NCBI RefSeq assembly: GCF_003259505.1
Contig: NZ_QLLK01000010.1
Location: 1-64,000 of the forward strand
Origin: Algoriphagus yeomjeoni
GTDB taxonomy: Bacteria > Bacteroidota > Bacteroidia > Cytophagales > Cyclobacteriaceae
DNA: 64,000 nt
Reading direction: 5' to 3'
Positions 1 through 61,711 of the stretch are shown here, in pieces; within the stretch, counting starts at the first letter, position 1, and each line of letters starts with the position of its first letter. The translations under genes were made by a program, and so were the position numbers. Below the pieces are notes generated by a model, which had not been told where the DNA came from, did no database searches, and worked only from the letters and a program-made list of their open reading frames with translations.

Positions 1-50
1 TAACTATAGGTCTGGTTACCGCAAAAAACCAGTAGTGCCAGCCAATGCAT

Positions 51-839
51 TTAATGACCCAAACCATCCAAGTCTTTAAAATAATACTCCACCTTCTCAT
101 TTCCTTTTTCTTTCAACCCATCCATCTGAACCAACTCCTTCACTTCCTTTTTGATCTCCCTGAAGGAACCGATCTCAAAGCCGATCTTGAGCTGAACCCT
201 GCTTTTGTACAAACTTGACTTTTCGTCAAAAAATGGATCAACGGATCCCATCACCACAGAGCGGATTACCTTACCTATAGGGATGGCTCTACCAACCGCG
301 AAGCTGGATGCCCAAGCTTTTCCATCGAAATTCCTTGATTCATATCCCGCAGGATTGGTGATGGTCACCTGATTGCGGTTTACCGTGCCCTGAGCAAACC
401 AATTCCATTTACTGAAACGTAAGCAGGTAAATACACCGAACCCTTCTCTTCTGAGTTGTTCATCGGCATCAAACTGCTTTTTCCAAGAAACCCCTCCCAA
501 AATGGATAACTGCTGGGAAAAGGAATAGGAAAGTCCATAATCAAACAGCAACCCATCCCCAAAGGAAGTCAGCGGATCATACCAGAGAACCATACCGACA
601 CGGTGAAAAAATGGTTGTCCAGCCAGTTGATTTGTTTCAAAAAATTCTTCCTTTTTCTTATTAATGTCAGATGAAATAGTCTTAATATTCCCAAGGGAAT
701 CAACTTTCAGTTTGGAAAAATCTTTACCTGCCTTTTGAATGTATTCTTCACTGATATGCCCAGCTTTCTCGGTTGCAAGTGCTTTGGCTTGATCAAAAGG
801 CACTTCAGAAGGCAATCCATTTTTGGGCACAGCTCCCAC
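51..839 (-). pseudogene. C-terminal part of a beta-barrel-like hypothetical protein, 5' end lost
   Basis: The frame reads on the minus strand from a GTG at 839 to a TAA at 51-53 (262 residues). There is no signal peptide, and the frame upstream stays open for only seven more codons before a TGA at 861-863, exactly where the composition becomes abnormal. The true start is therefore probably missing. The first 75 residues are polar and helical. After that come alternating aromatic/hydrophobic stretches (for example VGMVLWYDPL, GLLFDYGLSYSFS, WNWFAQGTV) that look like outer-membrane beta strands. I recognise no family. The last 30 residues are charged. It lies downstream of the RHS locus on the same strand. 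Whether it is really truncated or only separated from its 5' end by bad sequence cannot be told here. Confidence 0.55.
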
Positions 840-3800
840 AACACACCTCCAACAGAAAACTCAGAAAGCGCCGAGCCTCGAAGAAAAAACACATCGTACA
901 ACACCCCAGAGATGTGCGCCCACAGTGGGCACAAGACACACACAGGGCAGAGCCCCGAGAGATTCGCAGTACTCGGAAACAACAGAGACCACAGCACACA
1001 CACACCTCAGATAGGCCAAAACCGCGCTGGAAACACACACACCCGACAAAAGGTGTTTTGCACAACATTCCAGATCGCCTCCCCGAAGATACCCACACAC
1101 AAAAACACGCTCCACAGCGTTACGCTCCCCTGCCAAAAAACCGCTGCGCCTCTCACTTGCCACAAGGAAAAGACGCTAACACGCCGGACACTCTCACGCG
1201 ATATCCCCCAAAGCTCTGAGAGCTCACACCACAGAAAAACAAAAGACTTCAAGAGAGTCAAGATCCGCGAGAGCTCACACATAAGGGAATCATGCGACGG
1301 AGGGAAAAGCAGAAACAGAATGAGAAATCCAAAGTAAGGGAAGCCTAGAATGCAAGCCACGACACAAATAGAAAGCGAAAAAAAAAGAGGAGGAAACCAT
1401 GAAGGAAAGAAAAAAAATAAACTCTGAACGCACAAAAAATAGGACGAAACAAAGAAGAAAATAACAAAAATAAAAACATTAATCAGGACAGAATTGTCAA
1501 ACCAAATAAAAATACAAAAATAATTTAAAAGAAAAGGGGAAAGTTATCTATCTGAAACGTAACAAATACGTCCAGCAAACCTTGAACTCCAACCGCAAAA
1601 CACAAGATAAAGAAAAAAACAGAAACAAAAGACAATTGGAACACACTACACATACACCGATGCACGTACCCCTACACCAACAGGGAGAAATAAAAGCCTA
1701 AATTCACATCAAGGAAGAAAAAACACACCTACCCCAACGGAACGGAACAGATCGTACAAACAACGCATTATCAAAATCAACCAAACGACTAAAATAGGAA
1801 AACAGGCCAACATCAACTCAATATAAAAAGAAAAAAAAAAAACCCTACCCAATGCAAAAAAAACCAAAACAAAGAAAAAGAAGAAAACCAACAAAATCAA
1901 AACCAAAAATAACAAGGAAAAAACAATCAGCAGCTAAAGCGTTGGCCACTACACCAAAGACCAGAAAACCAAACCAAATTGATCGACCCTTTACATCAAA
2001 TAAAAAAAATAAATTAGAGAACTCATCAAAACCAAATGCCCCCACAACAAAATACGCCATACTAAACAAAAGACCCAAAACAAAATCAACACCAACACCA
2101 ATTGAAACATCAAAGGGCGCGCCATAAGTACAAAATACTATAACAACAATGACCAATATTGAAACCCAAAAAAAACAATCACCAACAACACCAAAAACCA
2201 ACAAAAAGCATTCTAAAAAAGGACCACACAATAGGCCACTAAATGACACAGCATAACCCAACCAATCCACCAAACAGAAACAACTTAAAGCCATAGAATT
2301 AAAACCAGTCCAGACAAAGGGTGAAAAATTAGGACCTACAGCGCAAACTGATCCAGAAGCTCTACTACAACAACTCAACCTGCAAAGACTAACCCGAAAA
2401 GTATGAAAACCACCACAACCACCTCCACAAACACCATCACAAACACAAACCCTGAACCGCCCAAATATACCAAAAGCTGGCAAAACACCGCAACAGAAAA
2501 ATCGCAAGGGGGAATAAAAAGAAGAACTGAACCCAAAAAGCCACCTCACCCGACCCCAAAAACGACCCACACCAAAAAACCAAGATAAGGTACAGTCACA
2601 CCAACCCCACCTACTCCTACACAACTACCCAGCCAAAGAACACTTCCAAAATCACGTTGAAATGCAAGTAACAAAGAAAGAAAAAAAACACCAACTGCCC
2701 GGAAAAACCTGAACAAAAAAGCCGGAACAGAGGCAAAAAAACCCCCATCACGGCCCGCAACCCACATCAAAGAAAGATCAGTAAATACAACGGGGATATC
2801 AACCCCGAAATCGTAAGCGAGGAAAACACAACAAGAAAACACCAAAGGCTCAACAACAACCCAGAACACGAGAACAGAAACACAAACCCCAACCCCATAG
2901 ACAAAATACTGAACAACAAAAAACTCAAACACTTCCTCCACAAAAAAGAAGAACCGATGCAAAGGAAAAGCAAAAACACAAACTAAACCAGCTATTCTCA
3001 TCCCAAATGAATAACAACAAGTCAACTGAACAACAAGAACAAAAAGACAAACAACCACTAGAAGACCAAAAAAAACATTCGAAAAACCATCAATGACGAC
3101 AAACGACTCCAGAAAACCATTTCTCCCGACCCACAGGGGCTTAAAAAAGAGAACATCACTACCCCCTGCAGCATGAAGCACCAAAAACACTACCCACTCA
3201 GAAAAGACACCAACAAAATCGAACAAAACCGAAACTAAGAAACTATCAAGAATCTTCCTAACGTTAATCCCTGCCAAAAACAACCTTGGCACCGACAAAA
3301 GCAAAAATGAAAGAATAAGAAACCCCAATAGAAAACAAATAACTAAACCCAGAATATGACCACCAAACAACAGGATAAACCCACCTATAAAAAAACTTAC
3401 TCAAATAACAAACCCGCAGCATGCTCCAAAAAAGAGAACCACCAAACCCACCAACAAAAGAAACCCTGAAAGAACGAATTACACTCAACAAGGTCCCAAC
3501 ACCCGCACACGGCAACCCTCCAACCAAAACACCGAACCCCCCCAAAAAAGATCGGTGACCACAAAACCCAAAAGTCGAAACACAAAAATTGGCCAAAACT
3601 CCGTAAAGACTACTCCAGAAAGTACAGACACCAAAAGGCATATCACCAATCATGTCACCCAAACTCCCAGAACCAGACGGACCAAAACCAAACAATCCAC
3701 CTAGAAAAACACAAAAAAAAATACCCAAATATCAAAAAACAACATACAACGAAACACCTCGGCAAAAAACGACAAGAACACACTAAATACATAAACAAAC

Positions 3801-5542
3801 CCACCCAGAAAGACAATCAGAAAGAAAACACCAAGAGTGAAAGTCGTACAACAAAACATAACCCCCTCGGCATCAAAAAAGCACCCAATCAAATGCAAAA
3901 CCACGACAAATCCAATCAAGAGGGGCAACTCATACAAAGTGGAAGGGAGAAACCCAATCCCCGAAGTCGCCCAACAAATCAAAAACACCCCATCATCAAA
4001 CCGAAACACCATACATACAGACCCCCCAATCATAAAACCAGAACACCCCAAAGTAAAACAAATCCCATCCGCAATACAAGTAAACATATGCCCAGAAAAA
4101 CCAAAACTCAAAACCCAAACCGGACAGTAACAACCACCAGAAGAAATAGTCCCTTTCCTACACAATCACAGAACACAAACGCATCAACAACAAAATGTCA
4201 AACCAAACGACCACCGAACCAACGCCCACCACAAAGAAGTGCAAAAAGCAGCAAAAGAAAACAGAAACAACCTCTTCCAAAAATCAAAACAAGACCCAAA
4301 AATTCTCTGAAAAGAATCCCTAGCACACTTCAAATCAACCCCAGAAATAATCCCATAGAAAATACAGCAACCAAACCCAAAAACCCAAAAAATCCACAAC
4401 ACAAAAGGACAGCAAAACCGAGAAAGGAAGGAAGCATAAAGAGGAGGCAACCAAACCACGCGAGTGGACTAACAACAAACAGTCCAAAGCGCACACCAGT
4501 CTTTCCTGACCAACAGCCCCAATAAAGCAGACGAAAACCGCACGATAGTTTGTGCCAGCCAAGAATTTACCATCTACCTGAAAGCACACAATCGCTCCCC
4601 AAGAGAATAACTAGAGACGTCAAGGACATAAAAAGCTGACCCTGCTCCCACACAACCAGGAAACATAACCTCAAAACTCTGTAACAAAATGCCACGAAAA
4701 GCACACTCCAGAGTACGATACCATCGAAAACCCCAGCGATTAAGCGACTGCATCCGGAGCATACATCCTCGACAAAAAAAAAAGGACACCTCCGGCAAAC
4801 AATAACCCGCTCAAACTACCCACATGATCCTAAAAGTAAAACTCCCCCCAAAAACCATCGACGCCGGCAAATAAGCGCACAAATTAAAAGAAAAGGAAAT
4901 ACAGAACGCAGGCAAGCAACACCATATACAAGAAGGAACAAAGCCACTGGATCAAGCCGCCAAGGCTAATGAAAAACCGCTGAGACAATTTAGAACATGG
5001 GCCACAGTAGGCAAAAAGAAACTGCGCCAAACTCTAAAAAATAACCTCCCAAGGCAGACAGAGAGAGCCATAGCAAAGCACGGGAAAACCATCCACCACG
5101 AGCGACACCAAAGCCCCCCACTCATCGCAACCACAACCCGCCCTAACCCGGCACAAAAAAACTCGAGCAAGACAACGCCGACCAAGATCGTTAAACAGAA
5201 CCTAGCACAACCAACGAAAAAATATATGAAAAAAAGACCCTAAACAATCAACAACACAACAGTCCAAGGAACAGCTGAAATACATACATTCCATCCAACA
5301 GACATTAACATAGAAACCAGACGTCATTCCCGAAACAAAAAATAGAAAGGCCACACCCAAGGCAAAAAAACTCGCCCAGGACAGCCTAAAAGCACGGTCA
5401 TAAAAAGAATTGTAAGCCCTAAAAAAAAAGAGAACACCACAAAAAGCCTGCCATCCCCAGCAGACACGCGAGAAATAAACAACGAAGCATGGCCATAAAC
5501 CCCCAAATAACTAGCAAAAAATCGTCCGGGTACAACCACAAA
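840..5542. other. 4.7 kb block of extreme A/C strand bias without credible genes
   Basis: The composition differs sharply from both flanks. Positions 2161-2220 hold 38 A, 16 C, 2 G and 4 T; 3001-3060 hold 34 A, 15 C, 5 G and 6 T. The flank at 6241-6300 holds 21 A, 14 C, 7 G and 18 T. The block opens with CA-dinucleotide runs and higher GC (about 840-1340) and then becomes A-rich. Minus-strand frames of 259 and 274 residues occur, but they are built almost only of Phe, Val, Gly, Leu, Cys and Trp, as expected when A is rare on that strand and stop codons are therefore rare. I see no domain, signal peptide, repeat unit or RNA. Genes on both edges break at its borders. The simplest reading is low-quality or misassembled sequence filling the hard-to-assemble RHS region; a biological origin would be extraordinary. 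Confidence 0.85.
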
Positions 5543-6127
5543 TCAACGAACATAATAAGCGCTGGAACCAACCCCGGAAAACACGGTAACTCCTTTGTTA
5601 GATCCCGACCAAGAATTCCCAGGAGCAGAGTTTTTCAGTACCTTCCCAACAGGGGAATTCTCATAAGAAATTCTCTCAAAGAAATTGGCTTCCGATGAAT
5701 AAATTGTCGACAATCTAGAGTTATAAGAAGACCCGGGAGTCTGAACAATTTTACCGGAATTTGTTGTTGAAGGATAGGGAGATAAACCATATTTGGACCT
5801 TCCATAGGCATCATATACAAATGGCCTCACCAAATCTTTTCCTGTTGGTGAAACCTGATAAAACACCTCTTGCAGGGGTTTTCCCAGCCCATCTGTATAA
5901 TAAGTAGTAGTTAAAGCCTGCTCTTTAGTCGGGTTACTTAAAATCAATTCTATGGGAACTTTAAAGGCCCATTCTCTAACTACATTGATATTTGCGGTCG
6001 AAGAGATAGAAGGAATCGATAATGTCTCCGGACTTAAAGCAGTTGAGGTAGTAATGCTAGTGGGTAAATTCTGTCCAAGAATCAATCTAGGCAATAAAAG
6101 TAGAAACCCCATAATTAACTTTTTCAT
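5543..6127 (-). pseudogene. DUF6443-type RHS repeat protein, N-terminal fragment
   Basis: The ATG at 6127-6125 gives a clean signal peptide (MKKLIMGFLLLLPRLILGQ); a TTG two codons earlier is possible but less likely. Only about 194 residues remain before a TGA at 5543-5545. The sequence shows the family's opening region: a DGLGKPLQEV segment followed by a YD-type repeat, VYDAYGRSKYGLSPYP, and NSWSGSNKGVTVFSG near the break. Proteins of this family in Bacteroidota are usually well over 1000 residues, with an RHS shell and a variable C-terminal domain that is often a toxin. That body is missing, and the frame stops as the composition block begins. It starts 2 bases after the preceding gene, so the two are cotranscribed. 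The assignment to DUF6443 is from recall of the motif style. Confidence 0.75.
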
Positions 6128-6129
6128 AA

Positions 6130-9100
6130 TCAATAATTAAAAGCTGCTTTGTATTGATAAAAAAACTGTTTATACCGTTCATTAAAGCCGTTCTTGCTCA
6201 TCACCAATCTTCTTTGACTATCGTAGGAGTAATTGCTTGGCAACATTTCCTGTGAATTTTCATACGCCAATCCTACAAAAGGAATATATCCAAACGTTTG
6301 CATTCGAGTGTTTGCTGGCTGTAACCTAACCTCATCGACTAAAATACCCGAGCCTTGAATCAGTACAGAAGTAACTCCGGTGAATTTATACTGATAAATC
6401 AACCAACTCGAGTTAATATCCGAATTGGAGATTCCTGAATCAGAAACGGTTGTAGTGCCCTTTTTAACAATTAAATTTGGGGTTTCACTTCCATTTTTCT
6501 TAACCGCAAATGTCAATACATAGGTTAATGAAGAGTTCAAACCAGATTTGGAGATTGAATTGGAAGAAATAGCAAAAACCGTTGAACCCGTGAATGCAGG
6601 TGTATTCAAGGGAGTAGAAGGAATAGTATATGTCCATCCTCCTTTGAAATTACTTTCGAAACTGGTATAAGCCAAATCTGTATCAGTAGCATTGAAATTT
6701 GTCAGGAATACTACCGGCTTTGAATCATAATGATCATATAGAATTTTGGTTTTTACCTGATTATCCCTAATTAAAGTAGGGTAATTTTTTGTGTTGTATG
6801 ATAAAACTTCTGATACAAGCCTTATTCCTGTACTTAAAACCGGATTAGACAGATTTAAACTATAAGAGCTACTTGGATCTTGCAAATCAATAGTATAAGA
6901 TTTAGAATGAACCCTTTTACTATTAATTGATTCAAGTGGAAAGTAACCTCCTCCAACAGTATATTCAGTAGTTCCTCTAATCTTTTTATCCAAAAATAAA
7001 ATCGGCTCTTTATACAAAGTATAATTTCCTTGTGTTCCTATTTCATCCGTATAATAATAATATCTACTTTTTGCCTCTCCACTGGTATTAGTATCTCTGA
7101 ATACTGCCTTGGTGGTTTGGCTATTAAGTGAATCTATCGAAAAGAAAACATTGGTTTCAAATACTTTCCCACTTCGGAATATCTTCTTTGTTTCTTTTGT
7201 CTTTGAGACTAAAGCTGATATATACCCATATTTGAAAAGATTATAAACAGCGGGCTTAAAAAGCCATTGTTGTCCCGGTTCCACTTCAGCTCGCTCCCTA
7301 TTTAGTTTCATTCCAAAAGAATAAAAAGAACTTGGACCTGCACTTTTTTGAAACTGTGTATTATTGGTGACAAACGTTTTGTACTGATAAGCAGTCTCCT
7401 CAATTTTCTCCAAAGCCCCTCCATAACCTTTGAAGGTTTCAGTTTTTGTTGGGATTCCATAGGTCCAATCATAGTTAATGCTAGCAACAGAAACTGAAGG
7501 ATTTGGTACGATATCACCAATTTTCGAAAAATGATAAACTACCTTGCCCTGAGAGCCGTCATTCATAATCTCTTCAACTCTCGAATAAGAAACACTATAG
7601 GTTTTTCCCATAAATTGGGATAACTGATCGTCACTTGATACCATAAAAAATTGACAATCCAGCTTGTAAGGTCCCGTGTCTAAGTCATGCTGCCATTGAT
7701 TCTGAGCATCAATAAAATTCACAGAGCTTTGTAAATTATCAATGAGTCCTGAAGAATTCGATGTTCCTTCTGAAATATATTTATAGTCCTTATAATTAGC
7801 TAAAACGTTTGAATCGGTATAGGAATTAATTCTTTTTATCCTTACTCCAGGACCAACCTTATTTAAATTAGAAAAGTAAACTAGGTTCTGCTCATATTCA
7901 AATGTTGAATAACCACCTGTTGGATAATTTATTCGGTTCAACATCCCAGCTGTTACCCTACTAGCTTGCGGCTCCCTATTTGCCCCGTTGGGATTATGGG
8001 TAGAAACAGTCGGAATAGCACTATAAACATAATTGTAAATGTGATATCCGTAATAATCTTGGTCATAGGACAACCTAGGAGAAAGATTACCATTATACGC
8101 AAAAGAATAAATCTGATCAGTATCAACTGTTACCTGATCTAATTTCAGTCTTTTATCCCAGGCTGTTTGATGGTTCGGTCCCGTAGTACCTGAAGAAGAA
8201 GAATAGGAAGTTGAAAACTCGATTTTCTTAACCGGGCTTACATCACCCATATTATAAACTTCAAGATACTGAAGTGCTTTTGCACCTGGTAAATCTTCCC
8301 TGGTCCCATCACCGGTAGATTCAGTTTTATATTTAAAAATTACCTGCTCATTCTCAGAAGTCTCAATTCTGATAAGCCTTTTCCCGGAAACTGAACTTTC
8401 TTGAATGCAGTTAACATCAATTAAGTTATTATCTGCCTGGCATCCATTTCCTGTAATCCATGAATACTTTTGTTCTGTTCTGTTAATTGCATAGGAATAA
8501 TTCTCATCCTCATAAAAGAAATTAATGACTCCACCTTCCTTTGATTCTACTTTTGATAAGTAATAAGAATTATTATAGATTCCAACATTGACACATCCTC
8601 CGGATTCCAAATAAAGAGAGCCAGGGCATCCAGGAGGCAGATAAGTAGTTTCAACTACATCAAAAGTATATTGCGTATAATTTTTATCAATTACCAGATA
8701 AGAATTCCCAAGATCCACTATAGTCAATCCTGTATAGGGCACTTCCCTATAAACGTCTTGATAAACTGGAACCATTACTCCAGAATGGCTGCCAAAATTA
8801 AAATTTATAACATCAGGTTCAGTATCGACACAGTTATTCAATCCATCATGTGCCCACATGTAATCAACATTATTCCTACTATCTGGAAAGGAAGTGGTAG
8901 TCGTATGAGGATTAAACGTTGAAAAATTAGTAGGAAGCTGAACATAATCCCCCCCAATTTTATTTGCAGTATTAGCTAACACACCAGAGGCATTCAGTGC
9001 CCACCCAAGACCTACATTTGAAGAAACCTGATTCACCTTGATCCCGCCACCGTGGTAAGAGAGTCCTATATTATGTGAATACCCATTTACAGTAACAGTA

Positions 9101-9393
9101 TGAATAGGAATTCCGATGTTGGCAACCCCTGTAGAATGATTAACGGGGGTCTCACCAAACTGTCCCAAAGAAGCCATTTGAGGAGAGGGTGGGACTTGCA
9201 TCTTTCGAAAAGGTTCTACTGAACTAAATGGCTCTGAAAACATATTCATTGTCAAAGCCTCTTGTTCTTTCTTTACTGTATCAGATTTTGCCTTATCAGT
9301 TTCTTGACTAGAACTTTGCGCCCAAGATGTGCTAACACATAAGCTAAATACAATAAAAAGTGTTGCAAAAGAAAACAGTATATTCCTATTCAT
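6130..9393 (-). CDS. Large secreted YD/RHS-type companion protein
   Basis: This is a 1087-residue protein with a signal peptide (residues 1-26, ending STSWAQ). Near residues 75-145 it carries the hallmark of Bacteroidota RHS-companion proteins: GETPVNHSTGVANIGIPI, then a Gly-rich SYHGGGIKV and VGLGWALNASG. The middle is a long beta-rich region with many Tyr/Asn/Ser residues. The C-terminus has a lone YD-type repeat (YSYDSQRRLVMSKNG) ending in FFYQYKAAFNY. Such proteins are typically encoded immediately before a DUF6443 RHS gene, as here. The role is inferred as a cell-surface or secreted RHS cage component, possibly delivering a toxin. The export route is not shown by the sequence. Confidence 0.75.
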   Translation of the reverse strand: MNRNILFSFATLFIVFSLCVSTSWAQSSSQETDKAKSDTVKKEQEALTMNMFSEPFSSVEPFRKMQVPPSPQMASLGQFGETPVNHSTGVANIGIPIHTVTVNGYSHNIGLSYHGGGIKVNQVSSNVGLGWALNASGVLANTANKIGGDYVQLPTNFSTFNPHTTTTSFPDSRNNVDYMWAHDGLNNCVDTEPDVINFNFGSHSGVMVPVYQDVYREVPYTGLTIVDLGNSYLVIDKNYTQYTFDVVETTYLPPGCPGSLYLESGGCVNVGIYNNSYYLSKVESKEGGVINFFYEDENYSYAINRTEQKYSWITGNGCQADNNLIDVNCIQESSVSGKRLIRIETSENEQVIFKYKTESTGDGTREDLPGAKALQYLEVYNMGDVSPVKKIEFSTSYSSSSGTTGPNHQTAWDKRLKLDQVTVDTDQIYSFAYNGNLSPRLSYDQDYYGYHIYNYVYSAIPTVSTHNPNGANREPQASRVTAGMLNRINYPTGGYSTFEYEQNLVYFSNLNKVGPGVRIKRINSYTDSNVLANYKDYKYISEGTSNSSGLIDNLQSSVNFIDAQNQWQHDLDTGPYKLDCQFFMVSSDDQLSQFMGKTYSVSYSRVEEIMNDGSQGKVVYHFSKIGDIVPNPSVSVASINYDWTYGIPTKTETFKGYGGALEKIEETAYQYKTFVTNNTQFQKSAGPSSFYSFGMKLNRERAEVEPGQQWLFKPAVYNLFKYGYISALVSKTKETKKIFRSGKVFETNVFFSIDSLNSQTTKAVFRDTNTSGEAKSRYYYYTDEIGTQGNYTLYKEPILFLDKKIRGTTEYTVGGGYFPLESINSKRVHSKSYTIDLQDPSSSYSLNLSNPVLSTGIRLVSEVLSYNTKNYPTLIRDNQVKTKILYDHYDSKPVVFLTNFNATDTDLAYTSFESNFKGGWTYTIPSTPLNTPAFTGSTVFAISSNSISKSGLNSSLTYVLTFAVKKNGSETPNLIVKKGTTTVSDSGISNSDINSSWLIYQYKFTGVTSVLIQGSGILVDEVRLQPANTRMQTFGYIPFVGLAYENSQEMLPSNYSYDSQRRLVMSKNGFNERYKQFFYQYKAAFNY

Positions 9394-9899: not shown

Positions 9900-10370
9900 T
9901 TAGAGCTCCCCTTCATCTGCAAAGGAATAATAGCCTTCAGTTGTAACAATAACATGATCTAGAACAGGCAGATCCAAAGCCTTACCTATTTCCACCAATC
10001 TTCTGGTCATTCTTTTATCCTGATCAGAGGGCAACAGGTTTCCGGAAGGATGGTTATGGCTTACAATAATCGACTGGGCACATCCTTTCAATGCCGCACC
10101 AAAAACCAGTTTGGCATCCACAACTGTGCCCGCAGTTCCTCCTTTTGAAATCGTACAAATCCCCAGTACCCTATTGGCTCGGTTAAGCAGCATGACCTGA
10201 AAATGTTCAGCCAGCTCCAGGGTATCCTTATCCCAAAAGCTATATAGCACTTCATACACCTGTCTGGAACATCCTACTTTTGGGCGTTGGGATGATTTTA
10301 CTTTTGGACTATAGCCCAGTGTAATTTCTGCTACTTCATTGAGATTGATAATTTGATTTACAGCTTCCAT
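9900..10370 (-). CDS. RadC-family JAB/MPN metalloprotease-like protein
   Basis: The 156-residue protein has the JAB/MPN+ zinc signature: H105-x-H107-P-S-G110 followed by Asp116, with an upstream Glu55 in the FQVMLLN strand. Members of this family found on mobile elements lack the N-terminal helix-hairpin-helix region of chromosomal RadC, as this one does. Despite the name, RadC is not shown to repair DNA in general; a Zn-dependent isopeptidase-like activity is suggested by fold only. It lies downstream of the tra operon in the same direction, a common place for radC-like genes in Bacteroidota conjugative elements. It is separated from the preceding gene by a terminator and 290 bases, so it likely has its own promoter. 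Confidence 0.85.
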   Translation of the reverse strand: MEAVNQIINLNEVAEITLGYSPKVKSSQRPKVGCSRQVYEVLYSFWDKDTLELAEHFQVMLLNRANRVLGICTISKGGTAGTVVDAKLVFGAALKGCAQSIIVSHNHPSGNLLPSDQDKRMTRRLVEIGKALDLPVLDHVIVTTEGYYSFADEGEL

Positions 10371-10593
10371 GATAACTACGTTTAAGTTAGAAATTATTTA
10401 GGATGCCATACACAGGTGTACCGGGAGCAAGGAAGCAGGAAACGGAATAAATAGCGCAGCGCAGCAAGCGGCTTTATGCCGTAGTCTGCTGACCGCCCCG
10501 ACCGGGACGCCTAGCTTTGTACCGAAATAATAAGAACCGGAACTTCCCTCCTATTCAACTCAGTAATTCTTGAAATCTCAAAAAAACAAGACA

Positions 10594-10620
10594 CAAAAAA
10601 ACCCGGTTTATAACCGGGCT
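10594..10620 (-). terminator. Rho-independent terminator after the transfer operon
   Basis: A perfect 7-bp stem (CCCGGTT at 10602-10608, AACCGGG at 10612-10618) with a 3-base loop is followed on the minus strand by seven T. It lies 44-70 bases past the stop of the DUF3945-related gene, and so ends the tra operon. Confidence 0.85.
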
Positions 10621-10663
10621 TTAAAGTAAAACTTCACCAACACTTAAATTAAGGCTAACAACC

Positions 10664-11392
10664 CTACACCTTCACTCCCTTCGATTTCCTCTGGGCCTCG
10701 GGGATCTTTTCAGCCACAGCTTTAGCCTGGTTTTGGACTTCTGTCAAATCACTGTTTTTCATTCGCTTTCCTTCCCCATCATAAACATTCATTGTTTTGT
10801 ACTTAGGATTGGCCTCCAGCAAAAACCTCGAATCACTGCCTATAATATCAACCTCGTGGCGGTTTCCTTTCTTCAGGCTGTAAAGTAACAGGCTAAGCTG
10901 GTCTGGTGACCCCATGTTATTTAAAGGAAGCTTCTGTACCGTATCCTCAAGTTTAAACCCATAATTCTGGTGGTATTGGGTGACCGGATGCTGTCCCTTC
11001 TCATCCTTACTCCCCAAATCCAACTGAAGCCAGGCATTGTATCGTTCCCCCTCTTTGTTGAACAGACTTTTATAAATTGCTCTTCCTTCCAATAGATTGA
11101 AGGCTTCTTTGGCTGAAACCCCCTGATTTTGGTAAAATCGCTGGGACTGCTCTTTCCCTTCAGGCGTACTTAATTTGGCATCAAAGCCATTATAATAATA
11201 CCTGCCCTCATCCGACTTTCTAAAATGTAAGCCGTACTCTAGTTTTTTATCCCCAATATCCTTGGTCAGGTTCAGCTCAAAATCGCTTTTCTTAGCCTTG
11301 ACCTGTTTCTCCAGTTCTTTGTTTAGAGTCTCTCCGAATCCTGAGTATTTCAGTCGGTCCTGTAGCTCCTGTATGTTTTCTTTGATTGTCAT
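10664..11392 (-). CDS. DUF3945-related conjugative-element protein
   Basis: The 242-residue soluble protein has no signal peptide or membrane segment. The central part contains the pattern seen in Bacteroidota mobile-element proteins related to DUF3945/DUF4099: YYYNGFDAKL, then KEAFNLLEGRAIYKSL and YNAWLQLDL (about residues 65-125). The molecular function is unknown; such proteins commonly sit at the end of tra operons or beside antirestriction and topoisomerase-like genes. It starts 7 bases after traN and is the last gene before the terminator at 10594-10620, so it belongs to the transfer transcript. Both ends are lysine-rich. The family assignment comes from motif recall. Confidence 0.6.
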   Translation of the reverse strand: MTIKENIQELQDRLKYSGFGETLNKELEKQVKAKKSDFELNLTKDIGDKKLEYGLHFRKSDEGRYYYNGFDAKLSTPEGKEQSQRFYQNQGVSAKEAFNLLEGRAIYKSLFNKEGERYNAWLQLDLGSKDEKGQHPVTQYHQNYGFKLEDTVQKLPLNNMGSPDQLSLLLYSLKKGNRHEVDIIGSDSRFLLEANPKYKTMNVYDGEGKRMKNSDLTEVQNQAKAVAEKIPEAQRKSKGVKV

Positions 11393-11399
11393 GATTGGG

Positions 11400-12236
11400 T
11401 TATTTTTGGTTTGAAATTAAAATGGGTTGAACCTGAAGTAGTTTCTTCCCTGATAGCTTCACGACCGGATTGCGGTCACCATTGCTTTCAAAAACCTGAA
11501 TGGAAAGTTCCTTTGCATCAGCTATAGTAAACCGGGGAAATGCAAAAACAGCCACACCTGCAGATTTACCGGCAACGCCTTGAAAAGGACTGAATGAAAT
11601 TGGCTCGATGGATACTTCTCTGATTGCCGTGCGTTTTGTCTGCTTTTTGTCCTGAACAGTAAACCTCCATTTTTTTGCCAGGTAGTCCACCCAACTTTCA
11701 TTTTCAACTGCCAGTTGAAAAAACAGTAACCCGTCTTTTTCAATTAGTTCTCCCAATCCCAGCCGGACCATACCCCTCTTTTTTCCCCAGAACAATCTAT
11801 TGGGAATCCACTGAGACATTTCATTGATCACAGCAGAAATATCAGCCGCATTCATAGCCGACCCTTCCAACAATGCATTGGCATATTCGACCTCTTGCTG
11901 CTTCCCGATATCTATAGGTCTGGCATCCGGATAGTCTGTGAAGTCCACTGTAAAAGGATACAGCTTTCCTTCGCTGGTTATCACATACATGCTGGTAGAA
12001 CTAAAATACCTTATTCCAGCTTTCAGCTTCAGCACGTTGGGAGCGGCCTTATCCTTTTCAGAAAGCACGGCCGGACTTCCAAAATCCGCACTGACTACCT
12101 CATAAGGAAAAACCAGCACCGTAGTTTTGTCCCATCCGATCTGAATCGGATAGGTTTCCATCTGTGCCTCCTGAACGAATTGGGCACAACAAATCGGGGA
12201 TAGCGCAAACGCTATCAATACCATAATAATTCTCAT
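11400..12236 (-). CDS. traN: Conjugative transposon protein TraN
   Basis: The 278-residue protein has a signal peptide (residues 1-18, ending SPICCAQ). The start of the mature protein, with its PIQIGWDKTTVLVFPYEV segment, is the typical TraN (DUF4138) opening, in which a beta domain binds the secretion core. TraN is the VirB9-like component of the Bacteroides-type mating apparatus, thought to lie in the periplasm or at the outer membrane with TraM. The gene order (traM directly upstream, 25 bases away) and the length agree with the family. No lipobox is evident. The AQ at the cleavage site is normal. Confidence 0.85.
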   Translation of the reverse strand: MRIIMVLIAFALSPICCAQFVQEAQMETYPIQIGWDKTTVLVFPYEVVSADFGSPAVLSEKDKAAPNVLKLKAGIRYFSSTSMYVITSEGKLYPFTVDFTDYPDARPIDIGKQQEVEYANALLEGSAMNAADISAVINEMSQWIPNRLFWGKKRGMVRLGLGELIEKDGLLFFQLAVENESWVDYLAKKWRFTVQDKKQTKRTAIREVSIEPISFSPFQGVAGKSAGVAVFAFPRFTIADAKELSIQVFESNGDRNPVVKLSGKKLLQVQPILISNQK

Positions 12237-54422: not shown

Positions 54423-54824
54423 TCACCCTCGTAAAATTTCCCATTTATCCTTATAATCAAGAATTTTACCCTTCATTATTCGTTTTTGCCCACTGAAGTC
54501 TGTCAATAGTGTTACCACATCTTGGCTTGGAACAATAAATATTTCTGGAATTACTCCAACCTCATCAAACTTATTGTTATAAACTACAAACACTATAAAG
54601 TGATTGTCTCGCGCTATTACATTGTTGACAATTAATGATGAGTATCCTCTAACCGATTTAACATCGATAGATAAAGTTTTTTGATCGTTAAGAACAACTC
54701 TGATATCAATTGACTTTTTATTCCCTTGACTTAAGTGTGCCTCTAATCCTAGCCGATATAATTTATGGAGAACCAAGTATTCACTAGCAATTCCTGTATT
54801 AAATGCATTTGCTCTTTCTATCAT
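54423..54824 (-). CDS. Small nuclease-like protein downstream of hsdR
   Basis: The 133-residue protein has a core of SIDIRVVLNDQKTLSIDVKS, that is Asp then Asp-Val-Lys in the order of a PD-(D/E)XK fold, after a helical start (NAFNTGIASEYLVLHKLYRL). It resembles small Holliday-junction-resolvase- or DUF4365-like proteins. It overlaps the hsdR stop by 4 bases (ATGA), so it is a cotranscribed member of the RM operon. Its role could be an accessory nuclease or an adaptor. A single motif supports this. Confidence 0.5.
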   Translation of the reverse strand: MIERANAFNTGIASEYLVLHKLYRLGLEAHLSQGNKKSIDIRVVLNDQKTLSIDVKSVRGYSSLIVNNVIARDNHFIVFVVYNNKFDEVGVIPEIFIVPSQDVVTLLTDFSGQKRIMKGKILDYKDKWEILRG

Positions 54825-57800
54825 CTCTGATACCTCTTAAAATTCTCCGCCTGCTCAAAAATCTCTTTGTAAACTTCATCCCGATCTACAGGAGGATAGT
54901 CGTTTTCTGCCAATAGAATAATCAGATCCACCTTCAGCTCTGCCTTGATATCATCCCGCTTGCTCCAGTCGGTGTATTTGGCTTTGTCATCGACTACATC
55001 CTTGACCAACTGAGCCAGGTGAACCAGCTTATCCTCGGGATAGACAAAATCATACTTTCTGGCCAATTCCTTGAGAATATCATAAAATGCCTTTTCCTCA
55101 AAGTCAATTCCCAGCTCGGTAAATGACTCCTTCTCCTTTTTCATGGCATAGTACAGGTCGATAATCTCATTGGTAAAGTCTTCCAATACTTCACTTCGCA
55201 AGACATCATCTTCCTTCCGCTCATTATATTTCTCCACCAGATGCTGCATCTTTTTGGAAAAGTCCACCCCCTTGATCTTATTGATCCGCTTGAAGTCATC
55301 TATGGCTTTGGCCAATAGCTTTTGCAGCAATTTGATCTTGGTATGGGGCAACTTGATCTTATCGATCTTAGCCAGGTAGTCTGCCTCAAAAATATCCACC
55401 TCTTTCTGCTCATCTTCTTCCAACTTAAAAATCTCTTCTACTCCTTCGCTCTGTATTGCTTCCTGAATCATTTCCCGCACTTTGGCATTCATCTGATCCG
55501 TATCCGGAGCTTCGCCCTTGGTGAGTTTAAAGACGATGGAGCGCACGGCGATAAAGAAATGAATCTTGTCTTTTTCTTCATTGGTAAAGGCTGCAGAACC
55601 TGAGCAAATATCATAAGCCGCCTTCATCCGCTTCACCAGATTCATAAAGCGCTTTTCCAGCTTTTGTGTCAACTGAACAAACTCAGCAGCTTTATTCAAA
55701 GTATGCAATTGCTCCAGCGGTGAACCACTAAAGTATTGCTTGTAATCAAAGGAATGAAAGATCGCTTCCAACAAGTCCACATGATCTTTCACCACAATGA
55801 TGGATTGCTGTATATCCTCAAAGTTCTGGCTGTCAATCGTAGAATACTGCTTCAGGGCCAGATTCATCTGCTTCTTGATCCCGATGTAATCCACCACCAA
55901 ACCTTTTGACTTTCCTTCAAATTTCCGGTTAACCCGCGAAATCGTCTGAATCAAACTGTGTTCCTGTAGCGGTTTATCGATGTACATGGTATCCAAAAAT
56001 GGCACGTCAAAACCTGTGAGCCACATATCCACCACAATGGCAATCTTGAAATTACTCTTTCCATTCTTAAACTGACGGTCAAGTTCCTTACGGTAATCCT
56101 GCGTACCCAAAAGATCCCAAAGATCTTTCTCATCATCCTTGGTTCGGGTCATAACCATATTCACCCGAGCCATTGGCTTCAATTCTTTACGGTCTTTTTC
56201 TGTCAACTCCACTCCTTGCTCTGCGAACAAAACTTCTGCCCAAGCTGGTCGCAAACCAATGATCTGCTGATACAGCTGGTAAGCAATCTCCCGGGTGCTA
56301 CAGACAAACATCGCTTTACCCAAAAGTGTACTTCCCTCTTCTATTCGAGTTTCGTAGTGTTTGACAAAGTCTTTTGCGATAGCTTCTATTCGTCCAGAAT
56401 CACCGAGAATCGTCCGCATCTGCGTGATCTGTCGCTTGCTTTCATCGATCTGGTATTCGTTCGAGCCAGCTTCGGCGACACTGGCGTAGTAGTTCTCGAT
56501 TTCCTGAAGCTTTTGATTTTCCAGCAAGACCTTCGCTGCTCTTCCTTCATAGACAATCCTCACCGTGATCTCATCCATCACCGACTCGGTCATAGTATAG
56601 GTATCCACGATCTCCCCAAACACATCCATCGTCGCATCGATTGGCGTACCGGTAAAGCCCACATAGGTGGCATTCGGCAGGGAATCATGGAGGTGCTTTG
56701 CAAAGCCAAAACTCTTCTTCACGCCTATCTCCGTCACCCGAACCTTCTGATCCAGATTGGTCTGACTGCGGTGTGCCTCATCCGAAATACAGATCACATT
56801 GCTTCGCTCGGTAAGCAGTTCGGTATCTTCATTAAACTTATGAATCGTGGTCAAAAACACTCCCCCGCTGTTTCTTCCCTTCAGTTCTTCCCGCAGCTCT
56901 ACCCTACTGCTCACTGACTTGATCACATTATCTCCGATAAAACCCTTGGCATTGGTGAACTGTCCGCTCAACTGATCGTCCAGATCGGTGCGATCCGTAA
57001 TCAACACAATCGTAGGACTGGCAAAGTCCACGCTCTTCATCAGCAGTCTGGTGAGATAAAGCATGGTAAAACTCTTCCCGCAACCCGTCGCACCAAAGTA
57101 AGTTCCTCCCTTGCCATCTCCATGGGGAAGCTGATGCAACTTGATATTCTCAAAAAGCTTAGTCGCCGCATAGTACTGGGGATAGCGGCAAACAATCTTC
57201 TCATCCTTCTTGGAGCTATCCGGCAGGTAAATAAAATTATGGATAATGTCACAGAGTCTATGCTTGTCCAGCATTCCCTGAATCAGCGTGTACATAGAAT
57301 CTATACCATGCACCTTGGTGGAGAGACCAGTCTTGGGATCGATCTCCTGATCCAAACCTGCAATCTTCCGCCAGGCATAGAAGAACTCATACGGAGCAAA
57401 AAAACTTCCTGCCTTGGTATTCACCCCATCCCCGATCACGCAAAAGGCATTGTACTTAAATAGATCCGGGATATCCTTTCTATACCGAACCGTCAGCTGA
57501 CGATAGGCTTCATGGATTCTTACTTCCTCCCGTATGGTTGACTTAAACTCAAAAACCACCAGTGGTAAACCATTTACATAGAGGATGCCATCTGGGATAC
57601 GCTTCTCAAATCCCTGAATCTCCAACTGATTTACTATCTTAAAAATATTATTATCAGGATGCTCGTAATCGATCAGGGAGATAAAAATATCCTTCTGCTT
57701 GTGATCTTCCCGCTTCAGCAGAAAACCATCCCGCACCCAATTCATGATCGTCTTATTCGTCTCATAGAGATCCGAAGCTGGCAACTTCTCCAACTCCCGG

Positions 57801-57991
57801 ATAATCCCAAAGATCTCCACCGGAGTGATCTTCTGATCTGCATACTTCTTCTGTAGAAATGCCTGCAAATCCACCCGAATCAGAACTTCCTCTTTGCCCC
57901 TGCTAATCTCCTCACCCGGCACATAGGGATAACCCTGCACTTCCAAAAGCGAGATAAAGGCCTGTTCAAGTTGGGATTCGGTGAATTTCAT
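54821..57991 (-). CDS. hsdR: Type I restriction enzyme subunit R (HsdR)
   Basis: The 1056-residue protein starts with the nuclease domain (Asp134 in DGILYVNG and Glu148-Phe-Lys150 in FEFK) and continues with a superfamily 2 helicase: Walker A GATGCGKS at 300-307 and DEAH at 404-407 (ICISDEAHRSQ), followed by VGFTGTPI and the RVNRKFEGK motif VI region. A helical C-terminal part follows. It cuts DNA after ATP-driven translocation in complex with HsdM and HsdS. It is the fourth gene of the operon, 27 bases after the YobI-like NTPase. All core motifs are intact. Confidence 0.96.
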   Translation of the reverse strand: MKFTESQLEQAFISLLEVQGYPYVPGEEISRGKEEVLIRVDLQAFLQKKYADQKITPVEIFGIIRELEKLPASDLYETNKTIMNWVRDGFLLKREDHKQKDIFISLIDYEHPDNNIFKIVNQLEIQGFEKRIPDGILYVNGLPLVVFEFKSTIREEVRIHEAYRQLTVRYRKDIPDLFKYNAFCVIGDGVNTKAGSFFAPYEFFYAWRKIAGLDQEIDPKTGLSTKVHGIDSMYTLIQGMLDKHRLCDIIHNFIYLPDSSKKDEKIVCRYPQYYAATKLFENIKLHQLPHGDGKGGTYFGATGCGKSFTMLYLTRLLMKSVDFASPTIVLITDRTDLDDQLSGQFTNAKGFIGDNVIKSVSSRVELREELKGRNSGGVFLTTIHKFNEDTELLTERSNVICISDEAHRSQTNLDQKVRVTEIGVKKSFGFAKHLHDSLPNATYVGFTGTPIDATMDVFGEIVDTYTMTESVMDEITVRIVYEGRAAKVLLENQKLQEIENYYASVAEAGSNEYQIDESKRQITQMRTILGDSGRIEAIAKDFVKHYETRIEEGSTLLGKAMFVCSTREIAYQLYQQIIGLRPAWAEVLFAEQGVELTEKDRKELKPMARVNMVMTRTKDDEKDLWDLLGTQDYRKELDRQFKNGKSNFKIAIVVDMWLTGFDVPFLDTMYIDKPLQEHSLIQTISRVNRKFEGKSKGLVVDYIGIKKQMNLALKQYSTIDSQNFEDIQQSIIVVKDHVDLLEAIFHSFDYKQYFSGSPLEQLHTLNKAAEFVQLTQKLEKRFMNLVKRMKAAYDICSGSAAFTNEEKDKIHFFIAVRSIVFKLTKGEAPDTDQMNAKVREMIQEAIQSEGVEEIFKLEEDEQKEVDIFEADYLAKIDKIKLPHTKIKLLQKLLAKAIDDFKRINKIKGVDFSKKMQHLVEKYNERKEDDVLRSEVLEDFTNEIIDLYYAMKKEKESFTELGIDFEEKAFYDILKELARKYDFVYPEDKLVHLAQLVKDVVDDKAKYTDWSKRDDIKAELKVDLIILLAENDYPPVDRDEVYKEIFEQAENFKRYQR

Positions 57992-58018: not shown

Positions 58019-61000
58019 TTAATAATTAGCAATAACTCGATATTTGTTTTTGTTCCAGCGACTAGTGTCAAAACTCCGTATAAAGGATCTTTTCTCTAAT
58101 AATTCAAAGAATTTTTTGTTCAGTGGATGTATATCATATGTTGGTTTGTGTTGTTTTTCGAACAACTCAGAATAATACCCATCAGAAGTTAACAATTTAG
58201 AAAGCGAGCGAATTTCAGCTATATCGAGTTTTTCCATGTGAATGATCAATAATTTGATTTTTGACTCCCAATAAAAATTATATTTAAACATAAATTCAAG
58301 TTGAGAAAAACTTAAGGGATAGTACACGGAGTTAGCCAAAATATCACATGCTCTTCTAGCTATTTTAAGGTCTTCTATTAAAAGACTTTGGTCCATTTCT
58401 TTGATTATTTCAAATTTTATGCTTAAATCTAGATTATTTGATTCTAAAAGCTGTACAATTTCTTCTGAAGAAACATCCAAATCAGAATAGCTTTTTAGGA
58501 AATCAATTTGAGATCCTTCAAAAAGCCTTATTCTAAGCTCGGGATATATTTCAGACAATTTTTCAACTCCATCAATATCTAAGTATATTAATTTTGAATC
58601 AATTGCAAGTTTTACTTTCTCTTCAGAAAGACTCCCATAATCAATCCAAGAATATTTAAAAGGAATAGATTTCCTAATTGCCGCAAAACTTTCAAAACTT
58701 AGGTCTTTTGAATTAAGAATTGTTTCTGACAAACTTTCAATCTCATCATTTGTTACATTACTAACAGAGTTAATTTTTGTATCTGCTAATTTTTCAAATA
58801 CAACTGGATTATTTAGATAAGTCACCAATACATCATCTAAACCTTTATCTTTTTCCAGAAATTTAAAATAGTCAAAAACATTTACCCAATAGGGAATTAT
58901 TTTTAATTCATTTAATAATAGTTTCTTTACCTCTAAATTAGAAATATCAGAAAGTTGTTCAATAAAACCATTTTGTTTATTAATAACAATATGTTTTAAA
59001 TCGAGATATAAATCAGGGTTATTTAAAAGATCTAAAATTGCAACCACAGATTCTTGAACAGATTCACTACTAATTATTAAAACATTTTTCACAAAACTAT
59101 TTATATTCACCTTAACGTAATGCAACAATGAAAGCAAATTGGAATTAAAAATAGATGTATAAACAGAGTCTATATATAAATCTTTATCTAATAGGACTGA
59201 AATATTATAAATATTAATTTCATAGTAATTATTATCATAAATATAATCAAAAATCCATTTATTTTCCGAGCTTTGTTTTTCAATCTTAAGAAACTTAAAA
59301 TCTAAATCATCTATAATTTTTTTAACTTTTTTCGTATTCTCAGACTCACTAACAAGCTTAAAAAAATTACCTCTTTCTTGAATATAGTCAATCAAATTAT
59401 AAGACCCACTATTGAATCTTATTATATCATCTATTTCACCATACTCAATAATGTTTCCAAAATAACGATCTTTTGTTTCATAAGAAAAGTTACTACTTAT
59501 TATATTATCCCAGAACCCTTTCCAGATTGCGCACAAATGATAAAAGAACTCTTTAAGGTATTTACCTCTATTTATATATTGATATATAAAGCTAATACCA
59601 TCTTTATTCTCGCTACTTAAAAATATGAATATATTTGATCTTTGATTATCAAAATTATTCTTAGAAAGAAGTTCATCTAAAATTTCAAAATTTAGTATAG
59701 ATACTCTTTTAAAATACTTAAAATTAATTTTTTTTATTAAATTTTCAATTTTATTTAATTTATAATCATAAGGAAGTTTTCCTCCGGTTAAAAGGGTATT
59801 GTAAAATTTAAAGTCACTTTCTGTTATGCTTACATCGTGAAAAATCGAAATGTAATTTTGATAGTTTTCATTTAAATATCCATTGATAATCAAATTCTTT
59901 ACTAAATCATTAGCAGTGCATCCAAACAAAAAATCTTCTAAAGATATTTTTTGAAAAATATCTGCCAAACTTAAAGATTCAAAATCAATTATATCTTTAT
60001 TTAATGTTTCTAGTTTATTCCTTAAATTGATAAGATTTTTATCTTTATTTCTAATTACTTCCATCCTCCCCTTGTAGGATTTCTCAGAGTTGATTGAGTT
60101 TTCAATCTCTGAGAATCTTAAGGCACCTCTTTTTTTTCTGTAATGAGTGTCAGAATGAAATTGAGTAAAATAATAGGACACTTCATTTGATTCAAGTAAT
60201 TGGTTGAAATTTTCTTCTTTAAGTAAATCTCCTATTGGAATCAAAATTGACAATGATATCTCAGAAATATTTGGATAGGTTTCTATAATTTTTGAAAAAT
60301 ATAATCTTTTCAAATTCTCCACACTCTCAATTTTCTCCTTTTCTATTTCAATAATTTTGTTTTCAACAGATTTAATTTCGTTTATTACCTCTGTTTTTAT
60401 AGAATCAAGATATATATTTTTATCCGTTAGTACTTGATATAGATCACCTTCATTTCTATATAATTTTGCAAAGTCTTCAGGGAATAGATTTTTATATGTC
60501 ACCAAAGCGAACAATTGATCTTGATTTAAATCAGGACTCATACTTTCTTTAAATACATTATATTCTAAAAAGATATTTATCAATAGCCTCATGTCAATAT
60601 CATTAATAAAAGTCATTACATCATCAGTAAATTCAGAGGAAAGTGAATTCTCCAATCCACTTTTCCGAATTAAAGTAGTTAATTGTTCAGAAGCATTTGA
60701 CTGATTAATAAATGGGATTATTGGAATAATTAAGTCAAAAAATTTAACCCTTAAAGTTTTATCAGTTAGGACTTCGTCTTTAACTGCATAGATAAATTTT
60801 ATATTTCTTTTGTTTTTAATAGATTCAAAATTATTTAAAAGTGTATTTATTTCTCTTAATTTTGTAAATATTTGTGTATTTTCAAATCTATCAAGGTCTT
60901 CGAATATTATAGTATTAAAGTTTGTTTTCTCAAAGAAATATAGAATTTCCTCTAAATGCTCATTAAATATTGATTTTATTGTTTTCTCTCCAATCTCAAA

Positions 61001-61711
61001 CTCTCCTTTTATATTCACTTTATTTATCTTTGAATTCGACCATATTCTAATAATATCCTTCATTATAAATATCACACCTATAATAAAAATAGTATAAAAT
61101 AGAAATGTTGTCCATTCAAAGTTATCATCAAATTTCCAGTTTATAGGGTTTAGCCACTTTAACAAGTCAAAGTTAACTATAGCAAACGCTGAATAAATCC
61201 AAAAAATTAACATCGATGAAACAAAGCTTAGTTTTCCCCATCCATATGTTTTAATTCTTTTAAATTTGGAATCTGGGATTTTTGACGGATCTACGTGATA
61301 AAATATTTGTTGTAGAATGCTTATTTCTAACTTTTTCTCAAGTTCATCTTTATTTGAATCCTCTTTAAATGAAGCTAAAGAAATATTCAGATATTTAAAT
61401 TGTGGGTTTAAGTGTTGAAAAGTTTTAATTATTGTACTCTTTCCTGAGCCATAATTGCCTGTTATAGCAATATTTAATATATCCTTGTCCAACATTGCTT
61501 TCTTCAAATGCGACAAGTATGGATTAACTAATTTTAGTTCCTTTTCTTCCAATAGTATCTTTGGAGCCATTGAGAGGATTGGAGGATTTTCTTCGATCTC
61601 CTGTTTTAGAATGGGCTCATTTAGATTTCTTGCTATTTCAAAGGTGTTTGTCGCTAGAAATTTTCTTACATGGAAATAAAGGGTATTAAAAAATTTCTTC
61701 ATATCTGACAT
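58019..61711 (-). CDS. YobI-like P-loop NTPase embedded in the type I RM operon
   Basis: The 1230-residue protein is very AT-rich in codon use (many Ile, Asn, Lys, Leu), unlike hsdS and hsdR. The N-terminal region holds a P-loop GNYGSGKST at residues 85-93, then a Walker-B-like IIFEDLDRFEN, typical of YobI/KAP-like NTPases. Two membrane segments (about 161-182 and 200-220) sit between the Walker motifs, as in KAP ATPases. The rest (about 400-1230) is a long helical Leu/Ile-rich region of no known fold, possibly a repeat-type sensor. Its ATG overlaps the hsdS stop (TAATG), and hsdR follows at 27 bases. In prr loci the anticodon nuclease PrrC takes this place, so a linked effector role is possible. 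It is inferred, not shown. Confidence 0.75.
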   Translation of the reverse strand: MSDMKKFFNTLYFHVRKFLATNTFEIARNLNEPILKQEIEENPPILSMAPKILLEEKELKLVNPYLSHLKKAMLDKDILNIAITGNYGSGKSTIIKTFQHLNPQFKYLNISLASFKEDSNKDELEKKLEISILQQIFYHVDPSKIPDSKFKRIKTYGWGKLSFVSSMLIFWIYSAFAIVNFDLLKWLNPINWKFDDNFEWTTFLFYTIFIIGVIFIMKDIIRIWSNSKINKVNIKGEFEIGEKTIKSIFNEHLEEILYFFEKTNFNTIIFEDLDRFENTQIFTKLREINTLLNNFESIKNKRNIKFIYAVKDEVLTDKTLRVKFFDLIIPIIPFINQSNASEQLTTLIRKSGLENSLSSEFTDDVMTFINDIDMRLLINIFLEYNVFKESMSPDLNQDQLFALVTYKNLFPEDFAKLYRNEGDLYQVLTDKNIYLDSIKTEVINEIKSVENKIIEIEKEKIESVENLKRLYFSKIIETYPNISEISLSILIPIGDLLKEENFNQLLESNEVSYYFTQFHSDTHYRKKRGALRFSEIENSINSEKSYKGRMEVIRNKDKNLINLRNKLETLNKDIIDFESLSLADIFQKISLEDFLFGCTANDLVKNLIINGYLNENYQNYISIFHDVSITESDFKFYNTLLTGGKLPYDYKLNKIENLIKKINFKYFKRVSILNFEILDELLSKNNFDNQRSNIFIFLSSENKDGISFIYQYINRGKYLKEFFYHLCAIWKGFWDNIISSNFSYETKDRYFGNIIEYGEIDDIIRFNSGSYNLIDYIQERGNFFKLVSESENTKKVKKIIDDLDFKFLKIEKQSSENKWIFDYIYDNNYYEINIYNISVLLDKDLYIDSVYTSIFNSNLLSLLHYVKVNINSFVKNVLIISSESVQESVVAILDLLNNPDLYLDLKHIVINKQNGFIEQLSDISNLEVKKLLLNELKIIPYWVNVFDYFKFLEKDKGLDDVLVTYLNNPVVFEKLADTKINSVSNVTNDEIESLSETILNSKDLSFESFAAIRKSIPFKYSWIDYGSLSEEKVKLAIDSKLIYLDIDGVEKLSEIYPELRIRLFEGSQIDFLKSYSDLDVSSEEIVQLLESNNLDLSIKFEIIKEMDQSLLIEDLKIARRACDILANSVYYPLSFSQLEFMFKYNFYWESKIKLLIIHMEKLDIAEIRSLSKLLTSDGYYSELFEKQHKPTYDIHPLNKKFFELLEKRSFIRSFDTSRWNKNKYRVIANY

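What the first reader, a model, noticed from the sequence alone, without database searches (positions are those of the whole stretch)
840..5542. A 4.7 kb block of near-two-letter (A/C) DNA
The plus strand is made almost only of A and C for thousands of bases (for example 54 of 60 at 2161-2220 and 49 of 60 at 3001-3060), while both flanks are ordinary. Genes break at both borders and no repeat unit or gene is visible. Explanations: low-quality read or assembly filler inside a difficult RHS gene; a contaminating or synthetic sequence; or a real region shaped by strand-biased mutation. The first seems most likely. If real, it would be a very unusual kind of DNA.
Basis: seen in the sequence. Interest (0 to 1): 0.72.

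Follow-up and report, generated by a model that had tools for sequence, protein, structure and literature searches.

The report
Two gene copies merged by assembly
The strange A/C-rich stretch is not real DNA: it is what results when two different copies of a duplicated bacterial gene cluster are laid over each other in a genome assembly and the alphabetically first letter is kept wherever they disagree.

Summary
In detail: window 828-5584 (4,757 bases) is 75.8% A+C on the plus strand, against 51.6% in window 6001-64000. It is an assembly artefact, but not low-quality filler. Two ordinary sequences are superimposed without gaps. The L layer continues the left flank (N-terminus of an unnamed companion protein, then an RHS core). 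The R layer continues the right flank (DUF6443/RHS gene, then a second companion gene). Where they disagree, the base earlier in A<C<G<T was kept: 660 of 720 differences from a same-genome RHS paralogue go to the earlier letter, the best of all 24 letter orders. Overlaying two tandem copies from Algoriphagus chordae by this rule gives A/C/G/T .474/.288/.133/.106; the block has .472/.286/.136/.107. The borders are sharp: the R layer begins at about 821-828, 2 nt out of step with L; the L layer ends at 5583, opposite the contig's own first base. Most likely (inferred) a repeat of about 0.8 kb was collapsed, both of its right-hand neighbours were placed after it, and their overlap was merged. Interest is low, apart from its use as a quality-control signature.

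The parts
828..5584 (.). The A/C-rich block: ungapped overlay of two sequences (L and R layers), first letter kept at each conflict
   Evidence: maximal A+C segment; letter-order tables; composition reproduced by an overlay of A. chordae copies; borders
1..827 (.). Inferred collapsed repeat R; its first 374 bases are identical to the last 374 bases of contig C7
   Evidence: that the genome holds R at least twice is inference
51..839 (-). Intact C-terminal part of the unnamed companion protein (no Pfam match); the last few codons at the 839 side already lie in the block
828..1433 (-). L layer: N-terminal part of that companion protein, in frame and without gaps with the intact part
   Evidence: tblastn residues 16-470 of the G024 homologue at 1433-69, 253 of 455 identical, no gaps
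828..1531 (-). R layer: N-terminal part of a second companion gene, 2 nt out of step near 828 and a further 51 nt beyond about 1275
   Evidence: tblastn from residue 1 at 1531; A. chordae diagonals 16706 to 16655 and 10757 to 10706
3855..5583 (-). L layer: RHS core
   Evidence: tblastn 5579-3855, 171 of 575 identical, no gaps; L029 ungapped over 4406-5583; ends at 5583 in a free scan to 5760
2328..5584 (-). R layer: DUF6443/RHS gene running on from the right flank; the alignments start at 2077-2999 and end at 4037-5584 depending on the homologue
   Evidence: gapped alignment to 7 of 7 RHS genes tried; tblastn
5585..6133 (-). Intact N-terminal part of the DUF6443/RHS protein (right flank)
   Evidence: PF20041 DUF6443, E 1.6e-30, for ORF 5543-6133
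6130..9393 (-). Upstream RHS-associated protein, 1087 aa; no Pfam match itself, its G024 homologue ends in an RHS repeat

Best explanation
The block is an assembly artefact. In the living genome an RHS/companion cassette is repeated in tandem; read from left to right: C7 - R - L - R - B, where R is a repeat of about 0.8 kb (window 1 to about 826), L is the rest of one unit (about 4.76 kb) and B is the next unit, leading into the right flank. The assembler kept one copy of R. Both L and B follow R, so B was placed straight after R, on top of L and 2 nt off, and the 4,757-base overlap was merged without gaps. At each disagreement the first letter in A<C<G<T was written (a tie-break, or an ambiguity code resolved to its first letter). 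Shown here: the two layers, what they are, their registers, the letter rule, the borders. Inferred: that R was collapsed, the scaffolding step, and the program that applied the rule.
For: Two registers of the same protein over the same bases, each continuous with one flank. The same-genome paralogue L029 over 1,178 ungapped bases: A stays A in 223 of 247; G is read as A/C/G/T 84/46/118/1; T as 108/87/60/117. 660 of 720 differences go to the earlier letter and ACGT is the best of 24 orders; ACGT is also best in 5 of 5 further, partly overlapping pieces (87-89%). L-type alignment: 8 of 8 loci score 178-1,221 against 44-58 reversed and 43-56 shuffled. R layer: 7 of 7 RHS genes score 158-326 against 56-86 codon-shuffled and 57-89 reversed. 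Composition reproduced by overlaying A. chordae tandem copies. Borders: the R register is at chance level left of 828 (8-14 of 50 same) and from 828 on follows the rule (0-5 of 50 later letters); the L layer has 0 of 150 later letters in 5434-5583 and 37 of 100 in 5584-5683. L ends opposite L029 base 5389, and L029 base 5390 is the contig's base 1, though L029's own RHS homology goes on to 5409. A. chordae holds the same kind of unit in tandem, 5.95 kb apart.
Against: No reads, depth or assembly record were available, so the collapse of R is not shown. R is seen once in full plus 374 bases at the end of C7. The R layer is known only through diverged homologues: a fixed-register scan gave no positive score among those printed, and 6 of 7 gapped R-layer alignments stop before 5584. 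The joint rule test (min explains 2,882 of 4,484 disagreeing pairs; where homologues agree the block matches 1,114 of 1,624) pools six homologues and uses alignments made with the rule. A mild lean to earlier letters exists in the intact flank too (66 of 105).
Confidence: 0.93

Rival explanations
1. Same overlay, different cause: two contig ends that are not tandem neighbours (copies from mixed strains, or ends merged by hand or by a gap closer) were forced together and merged by letter order.
For: The two layers and the letter rule do not depend on how the ends came together. Reads are not available.
Against: The block's two borders coincide with positions that the repeat model predicts: both layers are the same gene at nearly the same position at the left border (2 nt apart), and L ends opposite the contig's own first base. 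A. chordae has such units in tandem.
Confidence: 0.06
2. Bitwise merging: a software fault combined two sequences held as two-bit codes by AND (or OR on the other strand).
For: It gives a similar bias; AND explains 2,686 of 4,484 disagreeing pairs.
Against: With A=0, C=1, G=2, T=3, AND turns C/G into A, so a true G could not be read as C. Observed 46 of 249 (.18), near the background share of C, while G read as T is 1 of 249.
Confidence: 0.005
3. Real DNA shaped by strand-biased hypermutation (deamination of one strand) of an RHS locus.
For: RHS homology is kept without gaps over long stretches in the L register and one strand is depleted of G and T.
Against: Transversions are as marked as transitions (T read as A 108 and as C 87 of 372; C read as A 98 of 310). 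A second register of the companion gene and of RHS lies on the same bases. The bias starts and stops at sharp borders where one layer begins or ends.
Confidence: 0.003
4. Low-quality base calls or one noisy long read used as filler.
For: Position close to a contig end; the region is repetitive.
Against: No gaps over 1,178 bases against L029 and 0 of 150 later letters next to the right border; noise would not carry a second gene.
Confidence: 0.002

Closest known systems
Collapsed-repeat misassembly with overlapping contigs placed on top of each other (general knowledge; not read in a paper here)
   Same: Repeat at a contig end, two neighbours competing for the same place, genes broken at both borders
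   Different: The overlap was written out as a letter-by-letter merge over 4.76 kb without N or ambiguity codes, which gives a two-letter look
RHS / DUF6443 genes of Bacteroidota with companion genes
   Same: Right flank carries DUF6443; both layers align to RHS genes of relatives
   Different: The block itself is not a gene; only its two layers are
Strand-biased hypermutation (for example deamination, repeat-induced point mutation; recalled)
   Same: One strand loses two letters
   Different: Changes here follow alphabetical order, include transversions, and two registers are superimposed

Membership tests
Assembly overlay of two sequences | Two different homologies in different registers over the same bases, each continuous with one flank | tested here: met
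Assembly overlay of two sequences | A fixed rule for conflicts between the layers | tested here: met
   660 of 720 differences to the earlier letter, best of 24 orders; G to T 1 of 249
Assembly overlay of two sequences | Sharp borders where one layer begins or ends | tested here: met
Assembly overlay of two sequences | Raw reads do not carry the block; depth raised over the collapsed repeat | not testable with these tools
   no reads available
Strand-biased hypermutation | Changes limited to one or two base types (transitions for deamination) | tested here: not met
   C to A, T to A and G to C are common
Low-quality read or filler | Random errors and indels, no second coherent sequence | tested here: not met
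RHS genes (right flank) | DUF6443 / RHS_repeat domains | tested here: met
   DUF6443 in window 5543-6133; RHS_repeat in L029 and in the G024 homologue; the block itself was not scanned for domains

The most novel reading that the evidence does not exclude
The A/C block is an artefact, but beneath it lies real and perhaps undescribed biology: tandem arrays of RHS core, variable cassette and an unnamed companion protein (open frames of 462-473 aa, no Pfam match in the two forms tried; by eye its C-terminal part looks like an outer-membrane barrel) in some Algoriphagus species, which may spread and diversify by recombination at the conserved companion/RHS borders.
Probability: 0.25. Interest if true: 0.35.

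Novelty: not a real feature. Interest (0 to 1): 0.12.

Why it matters
It explains a very odd sequence and gives a diagnostic that needs no reads: composition A>C>G>T on one strand, a triangular A<C<G<T table against homologues, and two genes in two registers at the same bases. A block with these marks in a public genome should be read as two merged sequences, not as exotic DNA, and genes predicted in it should be discarded.

Tried and rejected
Bitwise AND of two-bit codes: contradicted by G read as C in 46 of 249. Deaminase-like hypermutation: contradicted by the transversions. Base-calling bias or filler: contradicted by the second layer. Tandem-repeat DNA: one 38-base array only. Promoter- and terminator-like sites in 500-6500 are no more than in shuffles (5 against 5.6; 11 against 12.1).

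Fixed-register scan for the R layer with L029 and 9 loci from relatives: no printed score was positive. Six peaks at z 5 or more were printed for the relatives; by their coordinates five run off the end of the homologue, where fewer positions count. The sixth (L032, z 5.3) lies at the register that the gapped alignment also finds, within 3 nt. I then used gapped alignment.

A second block in the same genome: a run of 26 A/C letters gave 29 overlapping hits: 3 in the block, 15 in C13, 6 in C12, 4 at C8:27309 and 1 at C8:78291. Five stretches around the hits outside the block were fetched. C8:78291 and C12 hold no A+C segment over the threshold; C13 and C8:27309 hold segments of 126-333 bases. 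TRF was run on one of the five (C13:19000-37000) and shows 7-base-type arrays there; the others look like short-period arrays by eye. The pattern finds a single place in the 4.7 kb block, so a smaller block elsewhere could be missed.

Papers: four searches, listings only (15 of 18, 3 of 3, 10 of 12 and 0 papers shown); none was opened.

Confidence in the artefact was not lowered by this.

Full report
WHAT IS THERE. The window begins at base 1 of contig C10 (143,987 bases) of a 4.97 Mb, 30-contig genome. Named relatives of the left-flank protein are from Algoriphagus chordae (83% identity) and A. locisalis (77%). Three other genomes with a relative are in the window's own genus, so the organism is most likely an Algoriphagus (inference). 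The A+C-rich block runs from 828 to 5584 and is the only A+C segment over the threshold in the window. The first 374 bases of the contig are identical to the last 374 bases of contig C7.

THE BLOCK IS NOT GENE-FREE. Proteins of related genomes were compared with the window by tblastn. The companion protein, intact at 51-839, continues through the border to 1433 without a gap (253 of 455 residues identical over 1433-69, intact part included). RHS core lies at 5579-3855 without a gap (171 of 575 identical). In another frame the same bases carry the companion protein again, from its residue 1 at 1531, and the continuation of the DUF6443/RHS gene of the right flank (5929-5039; also 3301-2726). Two proteins in two registers at the same bases point to two superimposed sequences.

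THE LETTER RULE. The same-genome RHS paralogue at the end of C7 (L029) aligns without gaps to window 4406-5583. A homologue A stays A in 223 of 247. C is read as A/C/G/T 98/198/7/7, G as 84/46/118/1, T as 108/87/60/117. Over two pieces (1,598 bases), 660 of 720 differences go to the earlier letter; of all 24 letter orders ACGT does best (91.7%; next 84.4%). In 5 of 5 further pieces from A. chordae and A. locisalis, some overlapping, ACGT is again best at 87-89%. This is what the alphabetical minimum of two bases gives. AND of two-bit codes would forbid G to C, seen in 46 of 249. As a control, the intact left flank has 66 of 105 differences to the earlier letter, so a mild lean exists outside the block.

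TESTS WITH CONTROLS. A score that assumes min(x, background) aligns the block to 8 of 8 loci tried at 178-1,221; reversed loci give 44-58 and shuffled blocks (3 per locus) 43-56. With the L layer taken into account where known, the R layer aligns to 7 of 7 RHS genes tried (from 4 genomes) at 158-326, against 56-86 for codon-shuffled genes (3 each) and 57-89 for reversed ones. One of the seven alignments (L032) reaches 5584; the others stop between 4037 and 5360. A simpler fixed-register scan had no positive score among those printed. Where both layers have homologues, min explains 2,882 of 4,484 disagreeing pairs, AND 2,686, L alone 2,272, R alone 1,291, max 681, OR 583; where the homologues agree the block matches 1,114 of 1,624. 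These counts pool six homologues at the same positions and the alignments used the rule, so they support but do not prove it.

THE BORDERS. A. chordae (L067) has two companion genes 5.95 kb apart and a 4.8 kb stretch duplicated at 85%. Each copy appears in the block on two diagonals 2 nt apart (16708 and 16706; 10759 and 10757); the second of each pair shifts by a further 51 nt near 1275. One search looked inside the block only, so one search repeated this across the borders. In the R register 8-14 of 50 bases per step agree left of 828 and 22-31 of 50 from 828 on, with 0-5 of 50 later letters; a free scan puts its start at 821-822. The L register agrees in 38-45 of 50 left of 828, and drops to 21-28 of 50, with 1-4 later letters, inside. 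At the right border the L layer has 0 of 150 later letters in 5434-5583 and 37 of 100 in 5584-5683, and a free scan to 5760 ends at 5583. Window 5583 lies opposite L029 base 5389. L029 base 5390 is the first of the 374 bases shared with the contig's start, although the RHS homology of L029 to A. chordae goes on to 5409. So L ends where a copy of the contig's own beginning would follow. That is expected if window 1 to about 826 is a repeat R held at least twice in the genome, as C7-R-L-R-B, and once in the assembly, with B placed straight after R, over L.

QUANTITATIVE CHECK. Overlaying the two corresponding A. chordae stretches (4,065 bases, 25.5% identical without gaps) by the rule gives A/C/G/T .474/.288/.133/.106; the block has .472/.286/.136/.107; independent draws at the composition of window 6001-64000 give .503/.263/.142/.093.

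WHAT IS INFERRED. The collapse of R, the scaffolding step and the program are inferred; reads would show the first. Two literature searches (listings only) showed no title or abstract that describes such letter-order merging; no paper was opened, so this is weak evidence of absence. No second block was found in this genome by a pattern of limited sensitivity.

WHAT REMAINS OF BIOLOGY. Beneath the artefact lies an RHS array with an unnamed companion protein. The companion was found in 4 of 58 genomes searched, the own genome included, and has no Pfam match for the window fragment or the G024 homologue. In G024 and on two contigs of G018 a companion gene lies about 8-13 kb downstream of a relative of the right-flank DUF6443 protein on the same strand. 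That is a lead for ordinary annotation and not part of the reported anomaly.

Noticed in passing
window 58019-61711 (-): A 1,230-aa YobI-like P-loop NTPase (PF20693, E 7e-108) in DNA of only 23-30% GC sits between the specificity gene (61711-63015) and the restriction gene (54821-57991) of a type I restriction-modification locus; the methylase part is at 63008-63913.
   Followed up: partly
window 1-374 and G000:C7:300389-300762: The ends of contigs C10 and C7 share 374 identical bases, so the two contigs are probably neighbours or share a repeat.
   Followed up: partly
   Followed up: partly
window 9900-12236 (-): A RadC-like JAB protein (PF04002) and a DUF4138 protein (PF13595); DUF4138 is recalled as a conjugative-transposon TraN family, so a conjugative element may lie next to the RHS locus.
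   Followed up: no
G000:C13:19000-37000 (L063): Many short tandem arrays with units of 7, 14, 21 and 29 bases (for example AACAACC, ATTTTAAATTCTAC, a 29/58-base unit).
   Followed up: no
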